Part shown: positions 3,001-64,000 of the stretch, piece after piece
Layout of the letters: every line of letters begins with the position of its first letter
Numbering within the stretch: position 1 is the first letter of the stretch
DNA from: Bacteroidales bacterium
GTDB taxonomy: Bacteria; Bacteroidota; Bacteroidia; Bacteroidales; Marinilabiliaceae
Direction: 5' to 3'
NCBI GenBank assembly: GCA_024401365.1
Contig: JAKSLE010000006.1
Location: 102,592-166,591, forward strand
Length of the DNA stretch: 64,000 nt
Notes under the pieces: model-generated
The model's input: only the letters and a program-made list of their open reading frames with translations
What the model was told of the DNA's origin: nothing
Databases searched by the model: none
Translations under genes and position numbers: made by a program

Positions 3001-3110
3001 ATAACCCGATGCATCCGAAGGTCCTGGTACAGAGAATGTCTGCTCTGAACCCGTGTAGGTAAACGACTGCGTGAGATCTATAGTAGGCTTAGCTATCTGC
3101 TTCTTGCCTA
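1..3110 (-). repeat. Tandem WSDG-type protein repeats (about 14 copies)
   Basis: Within the giant gene, a unit of about 68-77 codons recurs every 203-232 bp. Each unit has a YTYDG-like strand, an A(G)xY turn, a TVxLKD segment and a WSDG or WADG motif followed by K-x-x-TFxI. On the plus strand the WSDG motif lies near 77, 303, 520, 725, 955, 1187, 1395, 1603, 1833, 2052, 2272, 2475, 2698 and 2925. Copies are diverged at DNA level, so this is an old protein repeat and not a recent DNA expansion. The array continues past the edge. Confidence 0.85.
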
Positions 3111-9100: not shown

Positions 9101-9873
9101 TTTGCATTCCTATTAAGTGTCTGCCCATTACCAGAGTCTATGAGACCAACATTATCCGCATACATGGAAAAACTACATGGTTGGAATCCATTTGTATTTA
9201 CTCGATACAAGTATCCATCCTGAGTCAGAACATATAAATTACAATAACTCTTTCCTGAACTAGCTCCCGTATTGCATCGTAACCTTGATGCAAACACACG
9301 TCCATTTACCAATTCATCCTTCTCGTTAAAAACAGAAATATCCCACGCACAGACCATACATTTTTGATCTGAGGGCCATGCATCACCTATTTGTTTTACT
9401 CCCAAAAGTACATATGGTAGACTTCTTACCTCAAACTCAACCGCATAAACTCCATCATAAGGCACATCAAATATAATAGGATTAAACTTATTACCTTTGG
9501 CACTTGACTGAGGATACCAAGGGCCAGCAGCTTCCGATGTAGGACCATTAATATAACCATTTGTACTATTAACATCAAATGCCCAAGAACGATTATCCTG
9601 AACATATGTAACCTTTATCTTCTTACCAGTGACAGAGCTACCTAAGGTTACAGTCTCTCCTCGCTTTGCAATAAAAAATATTTTAGAGGTTCCTTCATCT
9701 CCTCCTAATTTTTCATTAGTATATTCCAATGTCGTTCGGTGACCACCCGAACCTCTGACATTTAACTGCATTGATCCTTCACCCCAAACTAAATTTCCCG
9801 AGGTGGTTATTATCATTAGCAATAATAACAGTATATTTTTACATATTGTTAAGCTGGTAAGTATTCTGTTCAT
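1..9873 (-). CDS. Giant repeat-containing surface protein, C-terminus cut by window edge
   Basis: The frame is open from the ATG at 9873 to base 1: 3,291 codons with no stop at the points I translated. Residues 1-30 form a signal peptide (a run of five Leu, then a small-residue cleavage region near SGNLVWG). Going toward the C-terminus I see a FlgD-like Ig segment (WNGLDGNGK, about residue 385), an SdrD-B/Cna-B-like domain (about 530-640, GVYDTGERGVEGV), a DUF11/CARDB-like domain (about 660-760), an InlB-B-type segment (about 860-900), a MucBP-like segment (about 900-965), eight composite MBG/YDG-type modules (about 965-2255) and at least fourteen WSDG repeats to the edge. The likely role is a very long extracellular adhesin or stalk. 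A T9SS or anchoring domain would be expected beyond the edge, so the export route is inferred. Same-strand neighbour is the sugar operon, separated by a terminator. Confidence 0.9.
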   Translation of the reverse strand, partial: MNRILTSLTICKNILLLLLMIITTSGNLVWGEGSMQLNVRGSGGHRTTLEYTNEKLGGDEGTSKIFFIAKRGETVTLGSSVTGKKIKVTYVQDNRSWAFDVNSTNGYINGPTSEAAGPWYPQSSAKGNKFNPIIFDVPYDGVYAVEFEVRSLPYVLLGVKQIGDAWPSDQKCMVCAWDISVFNEKDELVNGRVFASRLRCNTGASSGKSYCNLYVLTQDGYLYRVNTNGFQPCSFSMYADNVGLIDSGNGQTLNRNAKISSGALQGGVVVNKPDLEAKDDILTHRLFFNTPDPNIEFMFGGFPVSPKPIASVIKCDFLGNTHNLNNAGNADVSMGGVFKVELDKRSTYEIIIDCDGDGKYNNTINTKTNGYSDRVLTAAGCAGTNYLSWNGLDGNGKSLPEGKYNIQVRTHAGDFHFPMEDVENNPNGIEIKLLNALAYQSTGKDDDKQYRVWYDARNYKTYNTTSVTTETTGVPNPKFVDMDYSTNDGISKGGTMKFTSSYGNDKIVDIWSFVVNDGKSVMQSSIDISTATAQKYAFITGTAYFEKLNAEEKGNGVYDTGERGVEGVKLTLCHNDAGKTPVLKDGKPITVITNNGGRYAFDNIPFATTTDKRGNVTGGTVYYIQAEKILVNGEAYSLTIAGEQIANNYRKIEIKQYDNFKVDIFGAGGNDILVEAAVSKTSLYTGQEQTVKITLTNVAEYPVNNVVVNVDQANLTSESILEGNINYTITGAELDGETFSNGVWTVPAMGKKETRVLTLKFIPIKPANTVSHEIKGYINSNNNIETKTNNNNATVTYKVIQSTAGSIVYKANNGGTGDDYIVKIPTIQSPEANSVLLALNETNIKANGCMTFKGWGVNDPLKVTNAPGDNISASLVGAALPVYAIWEGDIAPYTVNHYEIMSDGTETTREVKASDNYTDKRVGDVVVVEQALIPGFQYIKKDEPLTLECNATNEYNIYYKFNIEIPQAVTGLEYDGTAHELLTTIEPEAGVSFKYSVNGGAYSTTLPKETAAGEYAIKLQVISGSTTVRVVDYTVTIAQKELGLSWTGLTFTYDTQAHAPVAKLTGIIGTDDVKAIVSGSKINVGNAYVATATLSGTKASNYKLPADVTTTFSITRATATMTPPAAVSGLVYNALSQTLVTAGTSTSGTTIQYSLTGTGDWSTTLPKGTDAGTYKVYYKLDGGANYNDIAVSLTPVIVTIAKAPLTLSVSMSDWVYGSAANAPVLTGYKGNGAQTIEYFTDAECSQKTTVANGALTSGQIPSNFGVYYVKWSVAESANYKGASASTSFKITKATATVTPPTALTLTYNGVDQVLIKAGTTTGGVLVYSLDGTSWVTTLPKGKDAKTYTVYYMVQGGANYNDVAKKSLSVTIAQKELTLTWGETTLPYTGSAQIPSVAISGVVGSDDVKVTAATAKTEVGTGYTATASISGEDVANYKLPSVVTKSFNITAIDPVLTKAPTAKTLTYNATAQNLVDAGSATGGELMYSLNGTSWSTSIPQGTTANSYTVYYKISGDANHNSTEKAGPINVAIAQKTIDVVWGATNFGYDGLAHTPTATLSGVETVDKSYVSVSVTGSGTAANTYTATATLQGTKSANYQLSTATKTTQFSIGKTTPTVTAPTVATSLVYNGTNQSLLATAGSTNGGTLKYSIDGESWTTTIPQAKAAQNYTVYYKVEGNTNYADVAAKTLNVAIAQKQLTINWGTKTFVYDGSAHKPTPTVTGIETGDKVVVSVDGEQINVGSSYPTKVTLSGADASNYKFAVGADQTTFAITKATIAITAPTAKSLTYNGVAQTLVTLATISAGTIEYSINNGTTWSDAIPTATNAGSYNVYYKVTGGANYNDIAKSGPIAVTIAKKELTLNWENTSFVYDGTSKVPTALLSGKYGTDEVGVTVTGAKTVVGKYTATASSLTGSAASNYQLPAANTVQFEIKKATPAVTAPVAASNMVYKGTMQNLVATAATTTGGTLKYSLDGSTWVTTIPQAKDAGTYTVYYKVEGDGNYNEVTGGNVPAVIAQKELTLTWGTTTTFVYDGTPKKPTLNFVGKVGTDDVTVTVSGEQTNKGSYTAKAILGGTASANYKLPANINLSFTIKEANPTVTAPVANTLTYNGTAQNLVTAGTCATGIVYYSTNGVDGWTVKIPTGKDAGSDYKVYYKVESTDDNYVGVAATGPISVSIAKKTIGIEWSNTSFVYDGNPHKPTATATGKEGTDNVTVVVSGEKTVSGSGYVATAVSIEGADVDNYKMPTTGLTTTFSIGKKQIAKPTIDLTQSFTYTGSEQTFSVPGPSDASGYTITGNKATNAGSYTAVIKLGDNFSWSDGSRADINQSWSIARATVALPSAVTATYTYDGTAKALEVTTNDNYTIGSANATATNAGTYNRVVTLKDKTNYVWADDTDASKTVTFTINKARVDLPTAPTTNFIYDGSEKTFTVTPNSNYTVAPENASATAAGNFPRTISLNDTDNYEWVDGTTAPKTIEFKIGTGTIDEPTIQTVYTYTGSTIVFLTGSEYDIINGEGKDAGKYTVKVTPKSGYTWAGGSVAQKSYDVEILPAKVDKPTFVQTEFIWNGSEYNFNVAENEGYTITGETKGIEIAVYPVTIALKSNYVWSDNTSAEINETFKIKHIVINVPAADETEFTYDGSDKTYNIPDNDAYDVINNVQKYAGKYIVSVSLKDDVHYIWNDNKTETKQYDFIIAKILVTVPEPEHTSFIFDGSVKTFAIPQDEQGRYTIGEENATGTLVGTYDRTVTLSDEINYAWADGVADVARTITFTITTGSVEKPIVETEHTYTGQPITLVPENDAYTVTDGVQTDAGEYDVVLTPNEGYTWVGGSTTPETIHVVIKPAQVAKPEVTVTEFTYDGTEFDFNIVENSGYTIEGLTKGTEPNEYTVKVTPKSNYVWSDGSGADAEIYKFYINKIQVAVPVKDETVFTYDGNEKTYNIPANSAYTVTGNVQTGAGNHTVTVSLNDVAHYVWADGKSEDKTYDFNIAKVKVDVPVVSDDAFTFDGTEKLFVVPADSEGRYIVNVTNASATEVGVYTRTVALVDKNNYVWATGTSEDLTYTFTITDGRVDEPVVEDTYTYTGTPIVFVPESSLYSVVDGTKTNVGEYTVYVTLNPGYSWSSGGADTKSYKVTIVPMAIEKPELVSGKYTYNGETQVFDIPVGPYDITGDTEGKDAGEYILTLVPDANHIWSDNSREELKITNVIDKATIAIPVAPQTTFIYDGKEKKFEIPAGEGYIVDEKNATGIESKSYDRVISLKDAQNTVWSDGTTDDKVITFNIGDGTIELPVVGEY
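3110..6980 (-). repeat. Eight composite MBG/YDG-type modules of about 160 codons
   Basis: Two half-modules alternate with a period of about 480 bp. One half carries LTYNGTAQ-like, YYSTNG-like and GKDAGxYKVYYKV-like segments. The other carries KELTLTWG-like, FVYDGTPKKP-like and GTDDVTVTVSG-like segments ending in NYKLP. The YNGT-type motif maps near 3541, 4020, 4507, 4985, 5467, 5950, 6470 and 6945, and the YDG-type motif near 3290, 3775, 4260, 4740, 5230, 5708, 6200 and 6712. Such beta-sandwich repeats are usual in long bacterial adhesins. Confidence 0.85.
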
Positions 9874-49670: not shown

Positions 49671-49701
49671 AAAGCATCACGAGCTCATCTCGTGATGCTT
49701 T
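49671..49701 (+). terminator. Terminator after the porin
   Basis: A 13-bp perfect stem (AAAGCATCACGAG / CTCGTGATGCTTT) with a 5-nt loop and a run of T residues. Confidence 0.93.
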
Positions 49702-50680: not shown

Positions 50681-53600
50681 ATGTGTAGTATCAGAGTAGC
50701 TATCATATTGATTGTCTTGATGTGCGTGAATCTCAGCACTTCTGTCGCGTCAAATATGCCTGACGGGAAGAATATTGATTCCCCATCATTGACCACTATT
50801 AAAGATAAGATCGATGAGATAGAGGACTACATCAATTCGAAGCCTGAGCTAGAAAAAAGAGCTCAGGCTTGTATTGCTACATATGAAAAGATTGCTCAAG
50901 CCAAGAACTATATATCATCCATTGCGGAACTCTTTAAAAACAATGAGTTAACGTTGCCGATTGGCATAAAGTCAGACAAGAAGAAATACACAATATGTAT
51001 TGAAGAAATATATCGCGATGTAGACAAAAGTGGCACAGTTCAGTACGTGAAAGCCATATGCGTCATTCCTCTTCAGGGTGGCAAGAATTTACTTGCTTTT
51101 GAAGGTATAGTGCAGATTGAAGGTGAGAATGGCATTGGCACTCATGGAAAACTTTCGCTGGTCTCCACAAACAAAATGTCATTGGGTAGTCAGAGCTCGT
51201 TGTATTTTTGTGAAGGTTCCAGTATTTCATTCTCGTGCGGTGGGTTTGACAGGGCTCATGCAAATCTGATGTTCGGCATCAACGACAGAGACGTATATAG
51301 GATTGACGATGGAGGGAATCCCAAGGGGCGACTGACGTTTGAGACTGAGGCTGATTTTAGCGATTTTGATGATTTTACCGTCACTCTTAATTTCAAGGAC
51401 AACATTCGCATAAAGGGTTTGGATGGCTTTACTATTCAGCTCGAGAATGCCGTTCTTGACCAGAGTTGCGTAAGCACCCCTGCCATTGTAGATTTCCCAA
51501 GCGGGTATTTCGGAGGTGAAAATGCCGATGCTGATCGCAAGACATGGCGTGGTATTGCTATTGGACAGGCAAAACTTGTCTTGCCTAAGTTTTCTAGCCA
51601 GCAGACCGAAGCGGCGTCAGTTGTTGGCATGGAGCATGTCATTATTGATGGCTTCGGATTTACGGGCAAAGCCGTGGCCCAGGATATTGTAAAGGATGGA
51701 CAGCTGAAAAACGGCGAATGGAGCATGAGTGTAACAGGGTTCTCTCTGTCACTTTTGAAGGGCAAGATAGACGGTGCCGGGTTCAGTGGAAAGATCAATG
51801 TGCCTCCTTTCGGAGCAAATTCTCTGCTCAATTACGAGGCTACATATATACAGTCTGAAAAAGCGTTCAAGATAAAGGCCGATCTTGGCGGCAATCGCGA
51901 CTTCCCGTTATTCTGTGGCAATCTGTCATTTGACAAAACAAGTAGTATCGAAGTAGAACTTCGTGACGGTAGTGTTTATCCCACAATCTTGGCAAACGGA
52001 ACACTTTCTGTTGTCGCGCCAATTGGTAAGGATACCGCAAATACAAAGTTGGTTCTGCCTGACTTGCGGTTTGAAAACCTGAGGATTAGCCGTGACGCTC
52101 CAGTCTTTGATATTGGAAGGATAGCCTTGAGCAACAACAAGGAGACGTCAGAAATGACAGGATTCAAACTTGTTCTTAACGATATCAACACCGTTCATGA
52201 CTCGGATGGCTCTGGTGTATATGTTAATGCTTCCGTATGTCTTACAGACCAGTTTACAGGAACAGCAGGATTGAATCTTTACGGAGACGCCGACAGGTGG
52301 AAATTCCGCAAGGTAAAGGTTGGCAGCATTAATGTTGCATATAATACCCCAGCTTATAGCATAAATGGTGGCGTCGAGTTCAAGGATGGCGACGAAATAT
52401 ATGGCAAGGGCTTTAGAGGAGATCTGGAGTTTAAGCTCATTGATAAGTTCACCCTAAACGCGGTGGGCGTCTTTGGCAAGAAAGATGGTTTCAAGTATTT
52501 CCTTACAGATGTTTTCTACGAAACAAATCCTACAGGAGGCTTGACGATTCCTCCTGCTCTCAATTTCTACGGCGTTGGCGGTGGACTCTACAATCACATG
52601 AAGCAGACGTTTGGAGGTCAGACGACAGACTTTGGCAAGTCGCTAACAGGCATCAATTATGTTCCAAATCAAGATGCCGGCATGGGCTTTATGGCTAGAA
52701 CTAAGTTCAATCTGTTTAAGAACTCTGCTCTGCTTGATGCCGATGTGACTTTTGAAATGCAATTTACTAAGGACTGGGGACTAGAGTTCATTCAACTTCG
52801 TGGTGAGGCAACCATGATTAGCGCCGAAGCTCAACAGGAACTGCTCAACGGGATAAAGCAAAAAATTGACAAGGTAAAGTCGGCAACTGGAGGAATTGTC
52901 CAGTTTGATGATTCTGAGCTTGCCCGAAAACCTGAGAAAGATGGCGCTCTTACTTCAACGATAGGCATCAAATACGATATAGATAACGATGTTTTTACTG
53001 CCAAGATGAATTCTTTTCTTGATGTGGCTGGAGTTGTCACTGGCAGGAATGCAAACAATCAGATGGGAATGGCTGATGCCTATTTTTCAAAAGACAAATG
53101 GTACACATATATCGGCACTTCAAAAGAGCGGTTAGGAATCTCTTTGCTTGGTATAGCAGATGCGGGTGGCTACTTTATGATAGGATCGGACGTCCCTGAA
53201 TTAACTCTTCCAGAAAAAATGGTGGGAAAGATTCCTTCCAACATGTTCGGTGATGCCAAGTCTCGTAAAGAAGGTAGTCGCCTAACTAGTGGATCTGGTA
53301 TGGCATTTGGTGCAGATCTCTCTGTTAATTTTGATGCTACACTTCCTCCTTTCTATGCAAGTCTTGGTGTCGGCATGGGTACTGAGATGTTGCTAAAGAA
53401 ATACTCTACCATGGCTCATTGCAGTGGCATGCAAGGACCGATTGGTATTAATGGTTGGTATGCACAAGCACAGGCTTGGGCTTGGGTAGATGCTGCTATT
53501 GGCATGAGATTAAATCTGTTCCATAAAGAAAGAAAGTTTGAGATTATAAAGGCTGCTATGGCAGCATATCTGGCAGGAGCAGGCCCGAATCCGTTCTATT

Positions 53601-55210
53601 TTGCAGGTGCTGTTGGTGGTGAGTTCCGTCTGTTAGGTGGTCTTGTCAAAGGCAAGTGTAACTTCGATTTCACGGTGGGCGAGAAATGTGATATTGAAGG
53701 TGGTTCTCCATTTGGCGAAGATGTTATTGCCCAGCTGACACCTATGGACAAATCGGAAGGAGTGAACGTATTCCTAGCTCCGCAGCTTATTCTGAACGTG
53801 CCAGCAGATGACGAGATGACCATAGAGGATGAGCAGGGACGGAAAGATATATATAGGGTGACTGTTGCGGAATTCTGGATAAAGAACATGCACACTGGCA
53901 AAAATGTCTCTTTCAAGAAGTCTGTTGAGAAGGAGAGGCGTGTTTTGACATACGATCCAGAGGAACCATTTGAGAGTCAGCAGAACTATAATATTTACGC
54001 CAAGGTGGCATTTGAACGTAAAGATGGCAACAAGTGGGTTCCCGTCTATGGCGATGATGCCAAGCCTTATTATGAAGACAAGCTCGTAGAGTTCAAGTCG
54101 GGAGATCGCCCTAACTACATAATGCAGGAGCATGTGAAATATGCATATCCAGCCGACAGGCAATACAATTTCCTGTCGAAGGAGTATAATCAAGCATACG
54201 TAATGGTGAGCGAGAACTATTCATACCTGTTTGCGGCAGACAGGACAAAGGATTACGATCAGAAAGTTCAGTTCACGCCATTTGAGGGTGCTACCCAGAC
54301 CAGTTCGTTCAGTTATAAGAGTGTGTCTGGAGTTGATGGAGTCGTATTTGAAATAGACATCCCAACAGACAAAATAAACCTGTCGCAGAACACCATCTAT
54401 AACATGGCCATTATCAACGTGCCGAAAAGGAAGATGGCGGCTGATGCCAATATCATAACGAAAGACAAGGACATGGCCCAAAGCAAACCGAACAAAGACA
54501 CAGAAGTTACAGAGTCGAAGCATGAAGCCGAAGGCAACCTCGAATTGCTTGAGCAATCCGAGATATATGCTGTTGACTTTAGGACTAGTTCATATAGGAC
54601 GTTTGTGGAGAAGATGGGGAAGATGGAAGTTGATGAGATAATACCATGGCAGGAACGAGTCCCTGTGTTTAATTTGATATCAAACATAAAAGACAAAGTC
54701 ACCCCAAGCGAAATGTTTGATATGTGTGAATATGATAATTTGAAAAGCGGGAAAGGATTAATTAAGTTAATGCCATATTATGATGGCACGCCATATTATA
54801 CTCAGCGAGTAAAACCACTCATGTATGGGAATAGTGATGTATTGAGTATAGTTGGCAGTTATGATGTTCCAACGAATGATGGCGTTGTAGCCTTGGGCCT
54901 TGATCAATACGATGTTGTTTTAAACGAATCGGATATAAAGACTGGTTCCCATGATGTCTATATTTCACCGTACGGAGCAATAAACAATCACATGCAGAAA
55001 TATATGCAACAAGACTACTCAGATATATCCATTAAGTTGGCAAATATACTGACCTCAACAACTCCACGAAAGCAAGGAGTGGTTGACTTTATGAAGACAG
55101 AGGCAATACCAGGCATCCAGAGAGGTAAATATCCTGTTAAGGCCCTATATGTATTGCCTGGCAAGAACAAATTAACAAGTGAGACAATAATAAACATAGA
55201 ATACAAATAA
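50681..55210 (+). CDS. Large exported protein, 1,509 aa, upstream of the SprB-like gene
   Basis: I do not recognise this family. Residues 1-24 form a signal peptide (VAIILIVLMCVNLSTSVAS). A short helical stretch follows (IDEIEDYINSKPELEKRAQ), then a long beta-rich body with repeated Gly/Asn turns up to about residue 1020, a glycine-rich piece (YLAGAGPNPFYFAGAVGG, near 965-982) and Ig-like segments toward the C-terminus (ILNVPADDEMTIEDEQGRKDIYRV). The tail ends KLTSETIINIEYK and has no clear T9SS sorting domain. In Flavobacterium, SprC and SprD precede SprB; this gene is in a similar place, but homology is not shown. Probably part of the surface assembly of the giant protein. Base use is more AT-rich than the housekeeping genes. 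Confidence 0.75.
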   Translation: MCSIRVAIILIVLMCVNLSTSVASNMPDGKNIDSPSLTTIKDKIDEIEDYINSKPELEKRAQACIATYEKIAQAKNYISSIAELFKNNELTLPIGIKSDKKKYTICIEEIYRDVDKSGTVQYVKAICVIPLQGGKNLLAFEGIVQIEGENGIGTHGKLSLVSTNKMSLGSQSSLYFCEGSSISFSCGGFDRAHANLMFGINDRDVYRIDDGGNPKGRLTFETEADFSDFDDFTVTLNFKDNIRIKGLDGFTIQLENAVLDQSCVSTPAIVDFPSGYFGGENADADRKTWRGIAIGQAKLVLPKFSSQQTEAASVVGMEHVIIDGFGFTGKAVAQDIVKDGQLKNGEWSMSVTGFSLSLLKGKIDGAGFSGKINVPPFGANSLLNYEATYIQSEKAFKIKADLGGNRDFPLFCGNLSFDKTSSIEVELRDGSVYPTILANGTLSVVAPIGKDTANTKLVLPDLRFENLRISRDAPVFDIGRIALSNNKETSEMTGFKLVLNDINTVHDSDGSGVYVNASVCLTDQFTGTAGLNLYGDADRWKFRKVKVGSINVAYNTPAYSINGGVEFKDGDEIYGKGFRGDLEFKLIDKFTLNAVGVFGKKDGFKYFLTDVFYETNPTGGLTIPPALNFYGVGGGLYNHMKQTFGGQTTDFGKSLTGINYVPNQDAGMGFMARTKFNLFKNSALLDADVTFEMQFTKDWGLEFIQLRGEATMISAEAQQELLNGIKQKIDKVKSATGGIVQFDDSELARKPEKDGALTSTIGIKYDIDNDVFTAKMNSFLDVAGVVTGRNANNQMGMADAYFSKDKWYTYIGTSKERLGISLLGIADAGGYFMIGSDVPELTLPEKMVGKIPSNMFGDAKSRKEGSRLTSGSGMAFGADLSVNFDATLPPFYASLGVGMGTEMLLKKYSTMAHCSGMQGPIGINGWYAQAQAWAWVDAAIGMRLNLFHKERKFEIIKAAMAAYLAGAGPNPFYFAGAVGGEFRLLGGLVKGKCNFDFTVGEKCDIEGGSPFGEDVIAQLTPMDKSEGVNVFLAPQLILNVPADDEMTIEDEQGRKDIYRVTVAEFWIKNMHTGKNVSFKKSVEKERRVLTYDPEEPFESQQNYNIYAKVAFERKDGNKWVPVYGDDAKPYYEDKLVEFKSGDRPNYIMQEHVKYAYPADRQYNFLSKEYNQAYVMVSENYSYLFAADRTKDYDQKVQFTPFEGATQTSSFSYKSVSGVDGVVFEIDIPTDKINLSQNTIYNMAIINVPKRKMAADANIITKDKDMAQSKPNKDTEVTESKHEAEGNLELLEQSEIYAVDFRTSSYRTFVEKMGKMEVDEIIPWQERVPVFNLISNIKDKVTPSEMFDMCEYDNLKSGKGLIKLMPYYDGTPYYTQRVKPLMYGNSDVLSIVGSYDVPTNDGVVALGLDQYDVVLNESDIKTGSHDVYISPYGAINNHMQKYMQQDYSDISIKLANILTSTTPRKQGVVDFMKTEAIPGIQRGKYPVKALYVLPGKNKLTSETIINIEYK

Positions 55211-55224
55211 AAAAACTATTGAAA

Positions 55225-56577
55225 ATGAAAAGATTACTTTGCTGTATATCGCTTGCGGCACTCATGTTGAACTTTGCAGGATGCAAAGAAGATGAACCGA
55301 GCAGAATTCCGACAGCGCCTACTTCATTTGGCATAGAAGATGGTGCTGTGGTAGAAAAGACGGATGTTAAGCTTTCTGCTTCTGGAAGCACAACGGAAAT
55401 GGACGACGTTTCTATTTCTTATGAATATTACATTGGCACTTCATCAGAGGACTTGAGTGCAACAGATGTCAATGTGGTTCTGATGCCATATACGCAGTAC
55501 TTCTGGAAAGCAATGGCAGTAAACGAGTATGGTGAATCGTCTGAATCTGATGTAAGAACCTTCTACTGTGTGCCTCCTTTGGATATTGAAACGGACAATG
55601 GCGATGGCGAAATGGCAGCTGTGCTACGTTTCAAAGGATTGAAAAACATCAAAAGTGGCGTAGTGACCGCTACTCCAAATCATGAAGGATACGAAATGGA
55701 TCCGATAAGCATACCTGAAGGTCAAGATTCGTGTTATGTTAAATTGAAGTATTATACGGCAGAAACAAGTAATGCATGGGTACAGAATTTCGATGATGAA
55801 CATGGAGTGTTGTATGAACCGGTCATTTACGATTTTGATGTAAAGTTGGACGTGACAGTCGGAGACAAGACTTTTTCATTAAACAACAGTTCAAAGGAAA
55901 TAATCCTCGACAAGCAGTCATGTGTTCGTGACCATGAATTCAATGTGTATCGATTGGTGAAGATTGGTAGTCAAACGTGGCTTGCAGATGATTATAGGGC
56001 ATTGTCATATTATAAGAATGGGAAATGGGTTAGTCTGAAGGAAGATAAGGATTATAAAATTGTTTCAATGGAATCTGGTGCCTCGTCAGTACTGTATTGC
56101 GATTTAATTGAAGAAGAATCTTTTGTTCCTAAAGGATTTCATATATCCACAGATGAAGATTGGATAGTTTTAGAAGAGTATTTAAGTGCAAAAGAAGCAA
56201 AATTATCTGATACAGGATGGGGATTGTTTTACTATCTGAGACCAGATTTAGATATACCTAATAATCCTGAACGTACTGAATATGTAATCAACTGCTTTAT
56301 GAAAGATGTATATGGAGTTGAGGTTGGTTTAAAACGCATGTTATGTTCGAAATATGACTGGATTGATGGAAACCACGATGGATATTCTTCAATGTTGAAT
56401 ATTAGACCTTGGGGGATGCCTGCTCTTACAACCCGAGGTTATGGCGCAAGTATTTGGTCTGGAAAGGGGAATAAGTTTATGTATAGAGTTTTTACAACAT
56501 ATACAGATGGAATGTTTAGGGTTGCGGACTATAATTGTCTCGAATCTGTTATACGTTTGGTAAAAGACAAAGAGTAA
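55225..56577 (+). CDS. FISUMP-domain lipoprotein with FN3-like region
   Basis: 450 residues from the ATG at 55225. A lipoprotein signal ends LMLNFAGC. Residues about 30-115 resemble a fibronectin-III-type domain (FWKAMAVNEYGESSESDVRTFY). Residues about 240-450 match the Fibrobacter succinogenes major paralogous (FISUMP) domain: YRLVKIGSQTWLADDY and PKGFHISTDEDWIVLEEYL are the hallmark segments. Such proteins are surface lipoproteins of unknown binding role. It lies 14 bp after the 1,509-aa gene and 6 bp before the giant gene, so all three are co-transcribed. Confidence 0.85.
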   Translation: MKRLLCCISLAALMLNFAGCKEDEPSRIPTAPTSFGIEDGAVVEKTDVKLSASGSTTEMDDVSISYEYYIGTSSEDLSATDVNVVLMPYTQYFWKAMAVNEYGESSESDVRTFYCVPPLDIETDNGDGEMAAVLRFKGLKNIKSGVVTATPNHEGYEMDPISIPEGQDSCYVKLKYYTAETSNAWVQNFDDEHGVLYEPVIYDFDVKLDVTVGDKTFSLNNSSKEIILDKQSCVRDHEFNVYRLVKIGSQTWLADDYRALSYYKNGKWVSLKEDKDYKIVSMESGASSVLYCDLIEEESFVPKGFHISTDEDWIVLEEYLSAKEAKLSDTGWGLFYYLRPDLDIPNNPERTEYVINCFMKDVYGVEVGLKRMLCSKYDWIDGNHDGYSSMLNIRPWGMPALTTRGYGASIWSGKGNKFMYRVFTTYTDGMFRVADYNCLESVIRLVKDKE

Positions 56578-56583
56578 ATACTT

Positions 56584-59500
56584 ATGAATCCATTTATGAA
56601 GGTATATATATTAATAATTTGTTTTCTTCTCCAGTCAATGACGATATGGGGACAAGACAATTCTTTTGTTACAGAAGGGCAAAAGAATACTGCCGTTGTA
56701 CAAATAACAAAACACTTTCATGGATGGACTCATTGCAACACAAGTGATGAACCTAGTTTGAAATCAATTAAAGTTGATGGAAGCGAATTAGGGTTTGGTT
56801 CGAAAGAATCTTGTTTTTATAATATTCCTATAACCATTTCTTTAGATGAAGTCAAAGCAAAAACAATAAAACTTGATTTAGAAGTTAATCATATAGATGA
56901 CAACAAAAATGCGTCGTTGTCTCATGAGTTGGGTATTGGCAAGCAATCGACCAAAACAATAAATAAAACATCGAAATGTTTATGGAAGCATGAAGGTTAT
57001 TCTTTTTATGCTGACCTTGTTGTCGATTATCCGATACATATTCGAGCGGAAAATAGTAATCCATTGTCGCTATTAATAGATCAAGATGAAAGATTACATA
57101 TCAGATTAAGCGATTATTATGAAGGCATTGCCAACACTTATGTATTAGTAAAGTTGTCAAACTCAGATGAAGGTTGGCGAGAGTTGAAAACTGCAAAATC
57201 AGTCAGTCCTAAATCTACAATAGATATATCTTATGAAGATATAGTAGGAGCTCCGTCAGCTTCAAATGCTGACTACATTAATTGGAGTGGCAAAAAGATT
57301 GACGTGAAGATAGTGAAGCAGATGATAGACTCTACATGGTCGGAAAGCAACATTTTACAATGTGTATTCTATCATAATGGGCCTGATTTTGAGCTATGTG
57401 CAATCAAAAGAACTGCTTGTGATGAATCTTCTGTTACCTTTACTGCAAAAATCAAAAACAATCCTAATATATACACTAATGATGTATTTGAATGGGTAAT
57501 AGCAGGATGTGTTGAAAATAAAGGGGACATAGTTGATTCACAAGGGAATCTTCCTCACTGTGCAAATGTGTGTTTTAAAGACAACAAGGAGAAACATGGA
57601 GAGTATGATCTACAGTTATCAGACATCACATGGCTGACCGATGATTTCTTGCAAAATAATGAGAACAAGTGGTGGATAATGCAACTTCAAACAAATGACG
57701 GAATAGATTATTCTAAACTATCTTTTGCAAAACAATGGTTCCAGATACCGCCAAAATTGTTGTCAGTTGAGGTGAGCCAAGATACTACTCGCACTATATG
57801 GAGAGGTAAAAAAGGATATAATTCAACAAGTACCTCTAATGCTTATGCAGTACTTAAAATTAACGATCCAAATAAGAATTATGAAGAACGGTTGCCCTAT
57901 ATCATTAAAAACGAAAAAGATGAGTCAATAGACACCATTTATAATCTACCTCTATCGTTTGGAGATTTGTCTGTTGATGAGCAAAATAACGAGAAATCAG
58001 ATTTTTTGAAAGAAATAGAAGGTCAGAAGGAGTCTTTTATTAAAAGCAAGCTAAGAATATGGTATAATGAGAAGGTTGTACAACAGTCAGATTCTGTGAG
58101 GATTGTAAAGACAACAGGAACTGACAAAACAATACAATATTCAAAGAATCCCCCTTGTTTTTTGGTTTTCAACAACTACTTATTTTGTTTAAATTCAGGA
58201 AATTGGACATCTAGTGATGCAAAAATTTCAAGATATACGTTTTCAGCAACACTATCTGATAGATCATTCCCACGCAGTTTTAGTTTGGGTACCGACATGA
58301 TGATTTATGCTGATCAAGATGGTTTATATTATGTAAACAATCAAAAACGTAACCCGATTAATACTGATAATAAAAAAACCGTTTTGTCGTTAATCTCTCA
58401 TACTCAGGATAATATACTTGCTAGAGATGGAGATAAATTGTATACTTTTACGGTCGGAACTACTTATACTACGTGTTCTATTTTCTCCGAACATCCATTT
58501 ACTTCTTTTGAAAATTTATATAAACAATCTGGTGGCGTAATTTACCAAATAAATGAAGACATAATTGAAAAATATGAGTCGAAAAATAATAATTGGGAAA
58601 AAACAGGAACATATAATGCTGTATCAAAACCATCATATAAGAATGTAACATTTACCTATGATAGGGTTACATATAAAAGCAACGACGGGAATTGGTATTG
58701 TCACTATAATGTACCTATAGATTTTAAGGATTTGTATAATTATTTCCTCTCAGACAAAACTCTGCTTGAATCAAATAGGTGGGAGAAGGCTTGGAATAAT
58801 TACAAGGAGTATCTGTGGAGAATGCACGTCTTGGAAAAATATGGCTACCATTTTAAGAAGCTTAACGCTTTTGTTAGAGAAACAGATGGCGATATGGTTA
58901 GTAATGGAAAGTTGGCTTTGTATGATATAGATGGGTGTCCTACTTATTTTGAATATGAGGTTAGAGTTCCTGAAGAACCAAGATTTGAAAAAAGTAATGA
59001 GGTTAAGCCTACTAGCCATTGTTCAAATGATGGTAGAATAACGATAAAGTATTTAGGTGGAGGTGATTCACCTTATATTTATGGAGATTATTATTTGTCA
59101 AATATTGGTGATGAATTAACTGTTACAGATTTAAAATACGGTCTCAATAAGATTGAGTTAATTTCAGCTTCTGGATCATTCCCTCTGGAGCATGATATAA
59201 AATCTGATGCAACAATAACGGTTGAAGAAACGAAGAATTACGTATCATGTGAAGATGATAAAGGCGGAATTGCTATTAAAGTTTCTCCAGATATAAGTGA
59301 TTATTGGTTGTTGAATTATAAAGGAGACATAATAAATAAAGATAAATTCCAATCTCTAAATAGTGGAGTTTATACATTGATCTACAAATTTAATGGATGT
59401 TCGGAAGAATTTGATTACGATAAGGAAATTAAAATACAAACTCTCCCATTTAAAATAACTAAGACCGTAACTAATGGTGATAGGTTAAATGCTGATGGGG

Positions 59501-62500
59501 CGGTAGTGGTTAATGTAACAAATCAAAAGGACATTATTACATGGACAGATGCCTCCAATAATACATTAAATGAAAATATAGTCCCCCAAGATGGTGTAAT
59601 TAAATATCTTCCTGCTGGTGAATATAATTGGAAAGCGAAACAAGGCGGATGCTCCGTTCCTGTTGATTTTACAGTAAAGACCCCTACAATTGAGCTGGAC
59701 GAATCCTCATGTGTGATTCAAGAAGGGGAAAGAACAAAAATAAAACTAAGTGCAGAATGTAATCTGATAAAGGATTATTACTTTAAAATAGGTGACAAAA
59801 ATTATGGAAAAACAGTTGATGTAGAGTTATATAATCTTGATAATATCGCATTAAACCTGTGTTACATGACGAACGCTGGTTCCTCATATAAGACAATAAA
59901 TTTGATGTCTGTCAATGATATGTCTTTCAATATTGACGCTAAGGCTGATGAGTCAAACAAAGAAAGATGCTTTGGAACAAATGGCAAAATACATATACTA
60001 AATAATAGCGGAGTTTATGATTATTGTTTTGGACAAAATATAGAAGATGTAACAAATGACGAAACCTTTGAATCACTAGGTAATAAAAGTGTATTAGAGG
60101 TAAAAGGTGAAGTGTGTAGCATTACTTTCAGAAAGAAAGAAGAAATAGGATTGCCTAACCATGTTAATGGCGCATTATTTCTGTACAGAGTAAAAACAAT
60201 AAAAGATATTAAGATAGACAATCCATCCAAGATCTCATTTGACGAAGTGGGGAGATCTGATGTGACATGCTATGGTGCTAATGATGGTAAAGCCTGGCCG
60301 ATAAACGTGTCGGGAAATAAGGGTGATTATACATGCCTACTTTATACGGACGATAATGTGTTTTGTACAAATGGGCAGCTAGCTCCAGGAAGTTATATGA
60401 TTAGAGTATCAGATAATGACTGTCCTTTGAATTATGCAGAAAAACCATTGTACATTGAGGCGCCAGAAAAGCCTTTGACATATAATGTCGAGACTATTGA
60501 TCCAACATGTCTTGATAACGATGGAACTATTACAGTCACGGCTTCGGGCGGGTGGGGAGAGTATGAACCGTATGAGTATTCAGCACAATTGGATGGTGAT
60601 ATCCGTAATGGGGATGGCAGAGTTTTTGTGTTTAATAATAAAAGGGCAGGCAAGTATAATCTCTCGATTTGTGATGGATTTTGTTCTATGAAAATCCAGT
60701 CAACATTAAATAAATACACCAATCCCTCTGTAAAAGATGCACTAACAGACCAGACGTCTTGTTATGGATATAGTGATGGTAGGATAAAAGAGATAATGGT
60801 AGAGACCAATGGGAAACTTAATGGGAAAGATGTGACTCCATCAAAATTGTTCTACAGCTTTACGCCTAAGAACAATAAGCTTTATGAGATAATAAAAGAG
60901 AAGGAACTTCCGTGGACTGACGGCATAGATAATCTTGCTGCAGGAACATATAACCTATGGGTTGAGGATAATAACGGATGCATGACTGATAATAATAAAG
61001 ATGGCTCAATTGGCATGTCTTTTACGGTCGGTCAGCCTGAGCATGTACAATTGGAGGTTAAAAAAATTGCAGACGTTTCAGGATATGGTGCCAGCGATGC
61101 TGTAATAAAGGTAAGGGCTGATGGCGGCAACAACTGTGACAAGAAGATATATGTGAAGAAAGAAGAGGCGGAGGATGAGAGTGCGGCAACGGAGGTGAGG
61201 GAAGATGCGCAAAGTGAAGACGAATACTTCATCGGTGAAGCTGCGACAAGAGGAGTTGAATATCAGATTGCCAAATATCCATTTGCCGAAGGCACATACT
61301 CCTTCTATGTGCGAGACAAAGAGAAGGATTGTCCAAGTAATGTGGTTAATGATATTGTCGTAGAATCACCCGATGAGCCGTTGTCAGCCGATATCGTTGT
61401 CCGCAAGGCGTTGTGCCACAACCAGACTGGATCTATAGATATAACACCCCAAGGTGGATGGGGTCCGCCATACGAAGTGATAGTCGACGGAGTGAGGTAT
61501 AGTGCAACCCCAAGTAACCCCAAGATAACGGTTGGCAAACTTATTTCGGGTGAATACACCGTGACAGTAAAAGATGCCAGAAAAAGGGTGGTCTATACGA
61601 CTACTGCCGATGTGCCAATGCCAAATGACGATATGTCGTTTGGTGAAGGAACCATGTTTGTTGCAGACAGGTGTAGTGGCAACGGCGGAGCACATATTGA
61701 GATTGTTGGCGGCAGTGGTGAGTACAATATTATGATGGATGGAGAAAACTACACCACAGACAAGTTTGACATCGATGGGCTACGTGCTGGACACTACAAG
61801 ATAGATGTTGTGGACGGCAATAAGTGTGAGGCTGTGCTTGAGTTTGAGATAGCAGATGAGCGCCTGTCGGCCGATATCCTTTCGTATAATAAAGCAGATG
61901 ATGGGGCAACGCTCGAAGCCGTTGTTGCAGGTGGTGTCGAGCCATATAGTTACGAGTGGAGACATGTTGATGGCCTGTTGAATCAGAGAGCTAATGTAAG
62001 TGTCATTGATAATCTCGAGCATGGAATATACACCTTGCTGGTAACAGATGCGGGTGAGTGTCATGCAGGTCCGATAGCAAAGGAAGTTGTCACGGACGGC
62101 GACCAACGTCTGGAGGTTGTCCAGCTGCAGAGAGAGACAGGTGTGGGCAGTGCTGACGGATATGTTGTTCTGAAGAGTGGTGTAACAGATTTCGTGTCAC
62201 AAAAAATATATCACATAGAATCAGATGGCAGTTCGACAGTGAGTGATATTAAAGTAGAATGGGTGGATGGATTGTTGAAGGTCGACAATCTGTCTAGTGG
62301 TGATTATGTTGTGAAATGCCAGCATAGTGACAACATGCACTTCAGCATGGCGAGGTTCAGGATCGAACCATACGAAAAACTGGATATTGAAGGAGTGAAG
62401 GTGCGTCATGTGACCATGCCACGAAATAGAGACGGACGTATCCGTATATCACTTAAAGGCGGCATAGCCCCATTTGCAGCCACTGTTGCGCATAACACTA

Positions 62501-64000
62501 ATGCAGCATTTGAACCGTTGACGATTGAGTCGGGCGACAGGTGTTTCGATATGGAGAGACTTATGGCAGGTGAGTATACATTGACTGTGACGGACAGCAC
62601 ACGTAGAGAGGCCAACATGGCGGTGCAGACCTTTGTAGTTGAGGAGCCAGAGTATTTGTCGCTATCGGCCGATATGACTCCAGCCATGTGCTATGGTGAA
62701 CCTTCGGGCAAAGTGAAGCTGACCGCTACAGGCGGTTGGGGAAAGTATATGTATGAGTATGCATCAAATGGATATGAGAAAACGACAGAATATAGGCGAC
62801 TATTCCCTGGCATGCAGATGTTCAGTGTGATAGACGAATATGGAACACGGAAGACGATAGAAGTGATGGTCGAGCAACCAGATGAGGTGCGGACCCAGAT
62901 AGCACAGATAGACAGTGTCGACTGTTATGGCAGCAATACGGGAAGTGTTACATTCCAAGTGAAAGGGGGCGATTCGAACTACACGATGTGGTATAGCGAC
63001 AAGAACCAAGACGAGTTGCTGTATTCCAAGGCAGAGGTGACACATTCTGGTCTGTCGATGGGAAATTATCGAGTCACCTTCAGAGATGGTAATGACTGTA
63101 TGTCTGTTGATACGATAACGGTGTTCATTCCAGAGCCTGACCTGCTTGAGTTGGCGAATGACGATGTTGTGAACACCACCTGTGAACTTGACAATGGCAT
63201 GATTGGCATCGAGATGAAAGGCGGCTCATTGCCATACACATATTCATGGAGAGAGAATGGAGAAGAATATGGCGGAGCAAAGACCTTAGCGATGACGAGG
63301 AGTGAGGCGTCTGGCTTGAAGCAGAACGGCCTATACAGCATAGAGATTGTCGACAAAAATGGGTGCAAGGCATCATACGAGAAGCGTATTGAGCCATCGG
63401 AGAATCCAAGGGTTTTGGGCGTGTCGACAACAGATGTTCTCTGCTATGGTTCTTCGGATGGTGTCGCTGCAGTAGATTCCGCTCAGGTCAAGTGGGCTTA
63501 TCCTAAGGCAGACTACCATCTGACATGGCCTCAGGGGCAGGATGGAGTGATGAGTGTCAATACACTGCCGACCGGAACATACATTGTTAAAATTACAGAT
63601 GACAACAACTGCTCGTCAACAACAGAATTCACTGTTGGCACTCCTCAGCCAGTGAAGAACCATCTTGTGGGCTTGCGCAATGCGATGTGCTATGGATATA
63701 GTGATGGCCGCATAGAGACCCGAACAATCGGAGGCGTAGGTGACTATAGATATATATGGAGTACAGGAGAAGAAACGTCTTATGCCAGCAACCTGAGAGC
63801 AGGAACATACAAGGTAATAGTGGCCGACAGTCACGAATGTGTCGATTCGGCAACATTTGAGGTAACAGAACCTGAGGAGCTGAAAGTAAATCTTGGTGAA
63901 GATGTCATTGTTTGTCCAGGCAGTTCATATACTTTTGATGCAGGTGAGTTTGCTTCTTACCAATGGTATAGAGAAGACGCAGACGAGGTGATAGAGACAG
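56584..64000 (+). CDS. Giant SprB-like adhesin, C-terminus cut by window edge
   Basis: An open frame from the ATG at 56584 to the end: 2,472 codons visible. A signal peptide is present (ILIICFLLQSMTIWGQ). The first 1,220 residues are beta-rich and I do not recognise them. From about residue 1226 to 2430 there are around 14 SprB-type repeats (CYGxxDGK, TxxGGxGxYxYxW, LxAGTYxVxVxDxxxC), and the last visible residues (LGEDVIVCPGSSYTFDAG, YQWYRE) open an Ig-like module typical of the region before a T9SS C-terminal domain. SprB is the gliding adhesin of Flavobacterium moved by the T9SS motor. Whether this protein supports motility is unknown; adhesion or surface coating is likely. Confidence 0.9.
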   Translation, partial: MNPFMKVYILIICFLLQSMTIWGQDNSFVTEGQKNTAVVQITKHFHGWTHCNTSDEPSLKSIKVDGSELGFGSKESCFYNIPITISLDEVKAKTIKLDLEVNHIDDNKNASLSHELGIGKQSTKTINKTSKCLWKHEGYSFYADLVVDYPIHIRAENSNPLSLLIDQDERLHIRLSDYYEGIANTYVLVKLSNSDEGWRELKTAKSVSPKSTIDISYEDIVGAPSASNADYINWSGKKIDVKIVKQMIDSTWSESNILQCVFYHNGPDFELCAIKRTACDESSVTFTAKIKNNPNIYTNDVFEWVIAGCVENKGDIVDSQGNLPHCANVCFKDNKEKHGEYDLQLSDITWLTDDFLQNNENKWWIMQLQTNDGIDYSKLSFAKQWFQIPPKLLSVEVSQDTTRTIWRGKKGYNSTSTSNAYAVLKINDPNKNYEERLPYIIKNEKDESIDTIYNLPLSFGDLSVDEQNNEKSDFLKEIEGQKESFIKSKLRIWYNEKVVQQSDSVRIVKTTGTDKTIQYSKNPPCFLVFNNYLFCLNSGNWTSSDAKISRYTFSATLSDRSFPRSFSLGTDMMIYADQDGLYYVNNQKRNPINTDNKKTVLSLISHTQDNILARDGDKLYTFTVGTTYTTCSIFSEHPFTSFENLYKQSGGVIYQINEDIIEKYESKNNNWEKTGTYNAVSKPSYKNVTFTYDRVTYKSNDGNWYCHYNVPIDFKDLYNYFLSDKTLLESNRWEKAWNNYKEYLWRMHVLEKYGYHFKKLNAFVRETDGDMVSNGKLALYDIDGCPTYFEYEVRVPEEPRFEKSNEVKPTSHCSNDGRITIKYLGGGDSPYIYGDYYLSNIGDELTVTDLKYGLNKIELISASGSFPLEHDIKSDATITVEETKNYVSCEDDKGGIAIKVSPDISDYWLLNYKGDIINKDKFQSLNSGVYTLIYKFNGCSEEFDYDKEIKIQTLPFKITKTVTNGDRLNADGAVVVNVTNQKDIITWTDASNNTLNENIVPQDGVIKYLPAGEYNWKAKQGGCSVPVDFTVKTPTIELDESSCVIQEGERTKIKLSAECNLIKDYYFKIGDKNYGKTVDVELYNLDNIALNLCYMTNAGSSYKTINLMSVNDMSFNIDAKADESNKERCFGTNGKIHILNNSGVYDYCFGQNIEDVTNDETFESLGNKSVLEVKGEVCSITFRKKEEIGLPNHVNGALFLYRVKTIKDIKIDNPSKISFDEVGRSDVTCYGANDGKAWPINVSGNKGDYTCLLYTDDNVFCTNGQLAPGSYMIRVSDNDCPLNYAEKPLYIEAPEKPLTYNVETIDPTCLDNDGTITVTASGGWGEYEPYEYSAQLDGDIRNGDGRVFVFNNKRAGKYNLSICDGFCSMKIQSTLNKYTNPSVKDALTDQTSCYGYSDGRIKEIMVETNGKLNGKDVTPSKLFYSFTPKNNKLYEIIKEKELPWTDGIDNLAAGTYNLWVEDNNGCMTDNNKDGSIGMSFTVGQPEHVQLEVKKIADVSGYGASDAVIKVRADGGNNCDKKIYVKKEEAEDESAATEVREDAQSEDEYFIGEAATRGVEYQIAKYPFAEGTYSFYVRDKEKDCPSNVVNDIVVESPDEPLSADIVVRKALCHNQTGSIDITPQGGWGPPYEVIVDGVRYSATPSNPKITVGKLISGEYTVTVKDARKRVVYTTTADVPMPNDDMSFGEGTMFVADRCSGNGGAHIEIVGGSGEYNIMMDGENYTTDKFDIDGLRAGHYKIDVVDGNKCEAVLEFEIADERLSADILSYNKADDGATLEAVVAGGVEPYSYEWRHVDGLLNQRANVSVIDNLEHGIYTLLVTDAGECHAGPIAKEVVTDGDQRLEVVQLQRETGVGSADGYVVLKSGVTDFVSQKIYHIESDGSSTVSDIKVEWVDGLLKVDNLSSGDYVVKCQHSDNMHFSMARFRIEPYEKLDIEGVKVRHVTMPRNRDGRIRISLKGGIAPFAATVAHNTNAAFEPLTIESGDRCFDMERLMAGEYTLTVTDSTRREANMAVQTFVVEEPEYLSLSADMTPAMCYGEPSGKVKLTATGGWGKYMYEYASNGYEKTTEYRRLFPGMQMFSVIDEYGTRKTIEVMVEQPDEVRTQIAQIDSVDCYGSNTGSVTFQVKGGDSNYTMWYSDKNQDELLYSKAEVTHSGLSMGNYRVTFRDGNDCMSVDTITVFIPEPDLLELANDDVVNTTCELDNGMIGIEMKGGSLPYTYSWRENGEEYGGAKTLAMTRSEASGLKQNGLYSIEIVDKNGCKASYEKRIEPSENPRVLGVSTTDVLCYGSSDGVAAVDSAQVKWAYPKADYHLTWPQGQDGVMSVNTLPTGTYIVKITDDNNCSSTTEFTVGTPQPVKNHLVGLRNAMCYGYSDGRIETRTIGGVGDYRYIWSTGEETSYASNLRAGTYKVIVADSHECVDSATFEVTEPEELKVNLGEDVIVCPGSSYTFDAGEFASYQWYREDADEVIET
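60259..63880 (+). repeat. About 14 SprB-type repeats within the giant protein
   Basis: Units of about 70-100 codons, each with a Cys-Tyr-Gly-type opening and a Gly-Gly turn. Visible openings include CYGANDGK, CLDNDGT, CYGYSDGR (twice), CHNQTGS, CYGEPSGK, CYGSNTGS and CYGSSDGV. Middle units are degenerate, with the Cys replaced (VSGYGASDA, YNKADDGA, VGSADGY). Confidence 0.8.

What the first reader, a model, noticed from the sequence alone, without database searches (positions are those of the whole stretch)
50681..64000. Three-gene surface operon ending in an SprB-like giant
A 1,509-aa unknown exported protein, a FISUMP lipoprotein and a giant with SprB repeats are spaced 14 and 6 bp apart. 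The order is like sprC-sprD-sprB of gliding flavobacteria, but the middle gene family differs. It could be a distinct adhesin or motility-related system, or a surface coat, in Bacteroidales.
Basis: partly seen in the sequence, partly recalled or inferred. Interest (0 to 1): 0.7.

Follow-up and report, generated by a model that had tools for sequence, protein, structure and literature searches.

The report
Surface operon from bacterial toxin loci
Three neighbouring genes that looked like a gliding-adhesin operon belong instead to a recurring surface-gene set found beside interchangeable bacterial toxins, and one of them has a swappable tip that we did not find described.

Summary
P1 (50681-55210, 1,509 aa, no Pfam match), FISUMP lipoprotein P2 (ATG 55225-56577) and giant P3 with six SprB stretches (56584 to the contig end) lie 14 and 6 bp apart. 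The order is conserved: of 48 P1 loci with at least 6 kb downstream, 43 have an SprB-repeat gene within the next three same-strand genes. Gliding is not supported: 37 of 37 complete relatives of P3 that I scanned end in a type A T9SS signal, and no PorP/SprF lies on either contig with the trio. A sprB-sprF-like pair is elsewhere: an 11,430-aa giant with type B signal and PorP/SprF 11 bp behind. The trio fits TANFOR-class polymorphic-toxin loci: the second copy in this genome is flanked by two toxin-type proteins, 95% identical over 909 residues with divergent ends, and P1 and such proteins co-occur (22 of 33 against 7 of 262 genomes). New here: the last ~200 residues of P1 can change abruptly between near-identical genes (core 99%, end 36%), and orphan cassettes carry that end plus a divergent P2. 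The mechanism is inferred.

The parts
49671..49701 (+). terminator-like hairpin (13 pairs) behind the upstream porin gene; possible left border of the transcription unit
   Evidence: consensus scan; 6 found against 5.2 expected, so weak; longest stem of the six
50681..55210 (+). P1, 1,509-aa exported protein of an unnamed Bacteroidota family; conserved core to about residue 1307
   Evidence: hydrophobic N-terminus in 67 of 70 relatives with a start in view
54602..55207 (+). P1 C-terminal exchangeable domain (about residues 1308-1509)
   Evidence: abrupt identity drop between near-identical P1s and the same border in the G054 cassettes; border placed in the window by alignment, not observed here
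55225..56577 (+). P2, lipoprotein with a C-terminal FISUMP domain; alternative TTG start at 55219
   Evidence: lipobox Cys (22 from the TTG) invariant in 9 of 9 aligned sequences
55957..56223 (+). FISUMP (PF09603) match within P2
   Evidence: 7.2e-12, residues 247-335 from the TTG
56584..64000 (+). P3, giant with SprB repeats, cut by the contig end; 31% identical to the complete 2,716-aa C34 copy, which has a type A T9SS signal
60493..63252 (+). span of the five SprB matches with E <= 0.001 in P3 (60493-60579, 61414-61473, 62668-62754, 62905-62985, 63160-63252)
   Evidence: converted to window coordinates; one search counts six stretches

Best explanation
The trio is the surface-exposed carrier part of a T9SS-linked polymorphic-toxin locus of the TANFOR class, not a gliding operon. 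The three proteins are exported by Sec. P3 crosses the outer membrane by the T9SS with a type A signal and forms a long SprB-repeat stalk. P2 is an outer-surface lipoprotein whose FISUMP domain makes the ligand-binding tip. P1 is a large scaffold that works with them; its last ~200 residues are an exchangeable adapter matched to whatever stands in the next gene. The complex presents, or positions for delivery, TANFOR-type effectors (common ~900-aa front part with an HExxH metalloprotease-like motif, then a variable end such as a nuclease or ADP-ribosyltransferase) encoded beside it or elsewhere in the genome. Exchange of the P1 end plus P2 by recombination changes target recognition. Shown by computation: gene order, signal type in relatives, linkage and co-occurrence with effectors, variable ends, cassettes. 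Inferred: complex formation, roles in binding and delivery, and that an effector stood right of the contig end here.
For: Order: SprB gene within the next three same-strand genes in 43 of 48 P1 loci with room; SprB or an effector somewhere in 48 of 48. Effectors: EFF profile in 27 of those 48 loci, although many 10-kb flanks end in or soon after the giant; the own C34 copy has one 68 bp behind the giant and one on the other side. In 295 Bacteroidales genomes 22 of 33 with a strong P1 have an effector match reaching the second half of the profile, against 7 of 262 without (Fisher p 2.6e-19). Polymorphic: twin effectors 95% identical over 909 residues then divergent; of 10 effector ends scanned 5 gave ART, PT-HINT (two), AHH nuclease or C39 peptidase, 5 gave nothing. 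TANFOR model hit in 2 of 7 effectors scanned, 7.5e-6 and 2e-5. PMC7073777 (main text parts 1-3 of 6 read) reports SprB, Fn3 and CTD domains enriched beside TANFOR toxins. Type A signal 37 of 37. Exchangeable end and cassettes.
Against: No effector is visible in the window: the contig ends first. 11 of 33 P1-strong genomes lack such an effector match in the listing, and 7 genomes have one without a strong P1. The TANFOR hits (25.9 and 24.5 bits) are far below the curated cut-off (67), and the own-genome effectors do not hit that model. P1 and the effector profile share no domain. Co-occurrence is not corrected for kinship, was sorted by hand from the listings, and the tool scored at most 2 (P1) or 3 (effector) candidates per genome. 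The 77 loci are the best of at least 444 and several share a genome. No structure could be predicted. Toxin export by the T9SS is itself a hypothesis in PMC7073777.
Confidence: 0.55

Rival explanations
1. Motility or adhesin operon of the sprC-sprD-sprB kind: P3 is a moving gliding adhesin and P1 and P2 are accessory proteins on the gliding track.
For: SprB repeats and tight gene spacing; T9SS present.
Against: Type A rather than type B signal in 37 of 37 relatives scanned; no PorP/SprF on C56 or C34; a separate 11,430-aa giant with type B signal and PorP/SprF in the same genome; toxin-type neighbours in 27 of 48 loci.
Confidence: 0.1
2. P1-CT and P2 form a new toxin-immunity pair: the variable end of P1 is the toxin and the lipoprotein behind it protects the producer at the surface.
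For: Conserved front, abrupt variable end, variable gene directly behind, orphan [P1 end + P2] cassettes: the layout of known polymorphic toxins (comparison recalled).
Against: In G054 the P1 ends of the two cassettes match the main copy at 97% and 93% in DNA while the lipoproteins are only distantly alike; P1 ends remain alignable with each other and match no toxin domain (Pfam scans of the window and C34 P1); in 16 of 43 loci nothing stands between P1 and the giant.
Confidence: 0.12
3. General adhesin or surface coat that merely shares genomic islands with toxin genes.
For: FISUMP and BACON domains suggest surface binding; the window copy has no visible toxin; 11 of 33 P1 genomes show no such effector.
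Against: Co-occurrence with effectors across the order and repeated close adjacency in distant Bacteroidota.
Confidence: 0.2

Closest known systems
TANFOR-class polymorphic-toxin neighbourhoods (Jana, Salomon and Bosis 2020, PMC7073777)
   Same: SprB-repeat protein with T9SS signal, Fn3 protein and a toxin with conserved front and variable end in one neighbourhood; T9SS-bearing Bacteroidota
   Different: The parts of the paper I read (1-3 of 6) do not name P1, the FISUMP lipoprotein slot, the 570-aa family or the exchangeable P1 end; the window copy shows no toxin because the contig ends; own effectors do not hit the TANFOR model
F. johnsoniae sprC-sprD-sprB-sprF gliding operon
   Same: SprB repeats, exported proteins encoded upstream, T9SS
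   Different: Type A instead of type B signal in the relatives scanned, no PorP/SprF on the two contigs, middle gene is a FISUMP or Fn3 protein, toxin-type neighbours
FISUMP/DUF1566 variable lipoproteins diversified by retroelements (PMC4159848, passages seen)
   Same: Lipoprotein with a C-terminal domain of that superfamily
   Different: Variation here goes with whole-cassette exchange; no retroelement was looked for

Membership tests
SprB-type gliding operon | SprB repeats in the giant | tested here: met
   six stretches, 7.9e-34
SprB-type gliding operon | type B (CHU_C) T9SS signal | tested here: not met
   tested on relatives only, the window giant being cut before its end: C34 copy and 36 others hit type A Por_Secre_tail (37 of 37 scanned; 5 of the 41 complete giants left out)
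SprB-type gliding operon | PorP/SprF gene next to the giant | tested here: not met
   4 in the genome, none on C56 or C34; the window's own right flank is missing; other genomes' loci were not scanned for it
SprB-type gliding operon | homologues of SprC and SprD | not tested
   sequences not at hand; the PMC9870892 passage only bears on the length of sprC
TANFOR polymorphic-toxin locus | toxin with TANFOR front part beside the SprB gene | tested here: inconclusive
   not visible in the window; the C34 copy has two effectors homologous (33-34% over about 910 aa) to proteins that hit TIGR02542 at 7.5e-6 and 2e-5, below the curated cut-off
TANFOR polymorphic-toxin locus | variable toxin ends with common front | tested here: met
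   in the C34 copy and in relatives; not in the window itself
TANFOR polymorphic-toxin locus | T9SS in the genome and T9SS signal on the SprB gene | tested here: met
   signal on the C34 copy and relatives
T9SS substrate (P3) | C-terminal sorting domain on this very protein | not testable with these tools
   contig ends inside the gene
FISUMP lipoprotein (P2) | PF09603 over cut-off and lipobox Cys | tested here: met
   (46.4 bits, cut-off 33.9); Cys invariant
polymorphic toxin (P1 itself) | recognisable toxin domain in the variable end | tested here: not met
   no Pfam match in the window and C34 P1, none at cut-off in L049 and L052; other P1s not scanned
polymorphic toxin (P1 itself) | conserved front, abruptly variable end | tested here: met
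   in part of the pairs compared

The most novel reading that the evidence does not exclude
P1 founds a phylum-wide family of scaffold proteins with a swappable ~200-residue tip: recombination cassettes made of the P1 end plus a lectin-like lipoprotein re-target a T9SS-exported toxin-bearing surface organelle, a specificity-switching counterpart of tail-fibre exchange for a secretion system for which I found no report of killing neighbours.
Probability: 0.3. Interest if true: 0.82.

Novelty: new variant of a known kind. Interest (0 to 1): 0.6.

Why it matters
How TANFOR toxins leave the cell and reach a target is open; PMC7073777 only proposes the T9SS. A conserved set of surface partners gives concrete genes to delete. 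A recombining P1 end plus lectin-like lipoprotein would also be a way for Bacteroidales, many of these from rumen or gut samples by their record titles, to change what they bind.

Tried and rejected
Gliding operon: rejected on signal type, lack of PorP/SprF and a separate pair. Right flank of the window: contig ends; no contig found that continues the giant; the last 21-127 bases of the window are not repeated in the C34 or C1 stretches. P1 against the PDB: three antibody chains at E 0.75-0.87, chance. P1 against the effector profile: no shared domain. 570-aa family (called BARREL in scripts): 0 of 24 members with a Pfam match at 0.01, no PDB match below E 0.059, so an early thought that it resembles SprA was dropped. 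T9SS as predictor of P1: 33 of 33 P1-strong genomes have SprA, but so do 278 of 295, p 0.125. P2 in the PDB: none at E 1. Promoter scan: 17 found, 18.7 expected.

Full report
What is there. The window is G000:C56:102592-166591 and its right edge is the contig end. Three genes run in one direction: P1 50681-55210 (1,509 aa), P2 (ATG 55225 or TTG 55219 to 56577) and P3 56584 to the end (2,472 aa visible), 14 and 6 bp apart. P2 hits FISUMP (PF09603, 7.2e-12), P3 hits SprB with six stretches (7.9e-34), P1 hits nothing in Pfam, nothing at cut-off in NCBIfam and nothing in the PDB beyond chance. A 13-pair terminator-like hairpin lies between the upstream porin gene and P1, though that scan as a whole is at chance level.

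The same genome has a second copy. On contig C34 (minus strand) P1 (1,496 aa, 49% identity), FISUMP lipoprotein (475 aa, 34%) and giant (2,716 aa, 31%) follow each other with gaps of 6 and 1 bp. The C34 giant is complete and ends in a type A T9SS signal. On the P1 tree (66 rows, quick method) the two copies are not sisters: the C34 copy groups with P1s of other genomes.

Conservation of the order. P1 relatives were found in 20 of 61 close genomes, the own one included, and, with a profile, in 36 of 295 Bacteroidales. Their titles name Bacteroidales, Cyclobacteriaceae, Fulvivirgaceae, Chitinophaga and others, with single records titled Chlorobiota and Planctomycetaceae that may be binning errors. 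The loci were chosen by P1 alone, but they are the best-scoring part of the set and several come from one genome, so they are not independent. Of the 77, 48 have at least 6 kb downstream of P1. An SprB-repeat gene is within the next three same-strand genes in 43 of 48: directly in 16, after an Fn3 protein of about 700 aa in 17, after a FISUMP lipoprotein in 4, after another gene in 5, after two genes in 1; the five misses are L096, L100, L107, L112 and L144. Anywhere in the locus, 46 of 48 have an SprB gene, 27 an effector, 28 the Fn3 protein, 23 a 570-aa family without known relatives, 22 a 300-aa family, 5 a close P2 relative. As a control the same profiles over 50 open reading frames from window 1-48000, the C1 stretch and the right end of contig C56 gave only the two known SprB proteins, one of them P3 itself.

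Not the gliding pair. In F. johnsoniae SprB carries a type B signal and needs SprF (PMC10202324, passages). From 41 complete SprB-repeat genes in the loci I scanned the ends of 36 plus the C34 copy (left out: L122 as a near copy of L130, and L073, L097, L107, L112, which are split or lie outside the P1-giant order): 37 of 37 hit Por_Secre_tail, type A, at E 0.01 or better. The genome has four PorP/SprF genes, none on C56 or C34. One of them lies 11 bp behind an 11,430-aa SprB-repeat giant on C1 that ends in CHU_C, the type B signal. So this genome has a separate pair of the sprB-sprF kind. The T9SS is present as judged by SprA, 2,518 bits; other components were not searched.

Toxin loci. The C34 copy is flanked by two proteins of 1,217 and 1,373 aa, 94.9% identical over the first 909 residues and divergent after that. 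The common part has an HExxH metalloprotease-like motif (read from the sequence). One of the two ends in DUF5675, the other matches nothing at its end. Homologues next to P1 in other genomes share this front (69% in L035, 24-36% in the more distant ones) and mostly differ at the end (among 19 ends compared, 8 pairs had a BLAST match, one of them near-identical). Of 10 ends scanned, 5 have domains typical of polymorphic toxins: ADP-ribosyltransferase (L082), PT-HINT (L125, L146), AHH nuclease (L123), C39 peptidase (L139, just below cut-off); 5 have none. Two of seven effectors given to NCBIfam hit the TANFOR model, at 7.5e-6 and 2e-5, well under its cut-off; the two own-genome ones do not, nor do three fused or partial relatives. 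Jana, Salomon and Bosis (PMC7073777; main text parts 1-3 of 6 read) defined TANFOR toxins, found SprB, Fn3 and T9SS-signal domains enriched around them, and proposed, without showing it, export by the T9SS. Their method counts known domains; P1, without one, would not be counted (my inference).

Co-occurrence. In 295 Bacteroidales genomes I sorted the listings by hand: 33 genomes with a P1 match at E 1e-40 or better (three with 6e-6, 1.2e-5 and 7.7e-28 set aside), 29 with an effector match at E 1e-30 or better that reaches beyond profile position 590, both in 22; Fisher odds ratio 73, p 2.6e-19. This is not corrected for kinship; the tool scored at most 2 or 3 candidates per genome, weak matches beyond the listing were not seen, and genomes with matches to the Fn3 or TANFOR-like front part alone were not counted (one search lists 109 genomes with any match). 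In the window's own genome the only effector matches are the two on C34; nothing of this kind is visible in the window. SprA is in all 33 P1-strong genomes, but also in 278 of 295, so that says little (p 0.125).

The exchangeable end. Of 26 P1 pairs with at least 70% identity over residues 100-1270, some lose identity sharply near residue 1307. Geofilum rhodophaeum (L079) and a MAG (L078) are 98.9% identical in DNA over 5,661 bases up to that point, 99% in the core and 36% over residues 1320-1505. L071 and L081: 92% and 44%, with middle genes that BLASTP does not match. Nine pairs in which both middle genes are the Fn3 protein keep the end (ratio end/core 0.81-1.07); nine others do not (0.36-0.77; Mann-Whitney p 4e-4, pairs not independent). 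I left out eight pairs before that test: seven in which an effector or no known gene follows P1 (ratios about 0.70-1.01) and L121/L117 (0.98); so the end is not always more variable than the core. In some of the nine the middle gene of one partner is out of view (L078, L072), and in others (L098/L108, L116/L128) the giant follows P1 directly. The first ~90 residues also diverge in some pairs (L071/L081 49%).

Cassettes. Each has a stretch of 616 or 708 bp, 97% and 93% identical in DNA to the main copy, that covers the P1 3' end and the start of the lipoprotein gene, and then the rest of a whole P2-family lipoprotein gene (462 and 471 aa) that is only distantly like the main one; behind the second, about 330 bp over the lipoprotein's end and the start of the giant are 85% identical. 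The match begins at P1 residues 1309 and 1326, the same border as above. The second lipoprotein scores PF09603 only at 0.005. In the window's genus, G001 (74% complete, no other P1 match) has a 52-residue P1 tail followed by a whole FISUMP lipoprotein and no giant, and G006 (84% complete) has a decayed junction of the same two genes. No such orphan was found in the window's own genome: one search gave only the two full P1s. On the P1 tree the kind of gene behind P1 changes 25 times where 38.5 is the shuffled mean: clustered, yet often exchanged. In L080, L094, L104 and L120 the slot holds BACON lipoproteins whose ends hit FISUMP, over cut-off in L080, at 2e-5 in L120 and marginally in the other two; in L071 a lipoprotein with a weak Lcl_C match (on the same gene in L035). 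FISUMP and DUF1566 domains are reported targets of diversity-generating retroelements, with a likely C-type lectin fold (PMC4159848, passages; that Lcl_C is the former DUF1566 is recalled), so the slot plausibly holds a recognition protein.

Mechanism. Shown by computation: order, T9SS signal type in relatives, linkage with effectors, variable effector ends, variable P1 end, cassettes. Inferred: Sec export and surface location, that P1, P2 and P3 form one complex, that P2 binds targets, that the P1 end adapts to P2, and that the complex serves toxin presentation.

Print. In the listings of searches of the held open-access library (several cut at 15-20 rows) I saw one paper on this kind of locus, PMC7073777. 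I did not find P1, its exchangeable end or the cassettes in what I read; preprints and most subscription papers are not held, the 2011 sprB operon paper is not held, and parts 4-6 and the supplements of PMC7073777 were not read.

Noticed in passing
G000:C1:123177-157469 (-), L030-L031: 11,430-aa SprB-repeat giant with type B T9SS signal and a PorP/SprF gene 11 bp behind it: the genome's sprB-sprF-like pair.
   Followed up: partly
L054:8819-13338 (G054:C17): Two orphan cassettes of P1 3' end plus divergent P2-family lipoprotein, away from the main locus.
   Followed up: yes
L160:4909-6547 and L159:4700-4890: P1 tail plus FISUMP gene in one incomplete congener genome without other P1 match, and a decayed junction of the two genes in another.
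   Followed up: partly
L158:705-2183: A 492-aa protein with a lipoprotein-like start that matches only the C-terminal third of P1, behind another P1 tail.
   Followed up: no
L051:482-7417, L052:13990-18759, also G154, G193, G254: P1-like part behind a TANFOR-like N-terminal part in one long protein or frame (1,589-2,427 aa).
   Followed up: partly
L049:11891-16499: 783-aa protein that repeats part of the effector front, followed by four related ORFs (one double) that look like immunity genes.
   Followed up: no
window 1-9873 (-): Open frame of at least 3,290 aa running off the left edge, only weak below-cut-off matches such as YDG repeats.
   Followed up: no
L093, L124: P1 loci in records titled Planctomycetaceae and Chlorobiota; may be mis-binned Bacteroidota contigs.
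   Followed up: no
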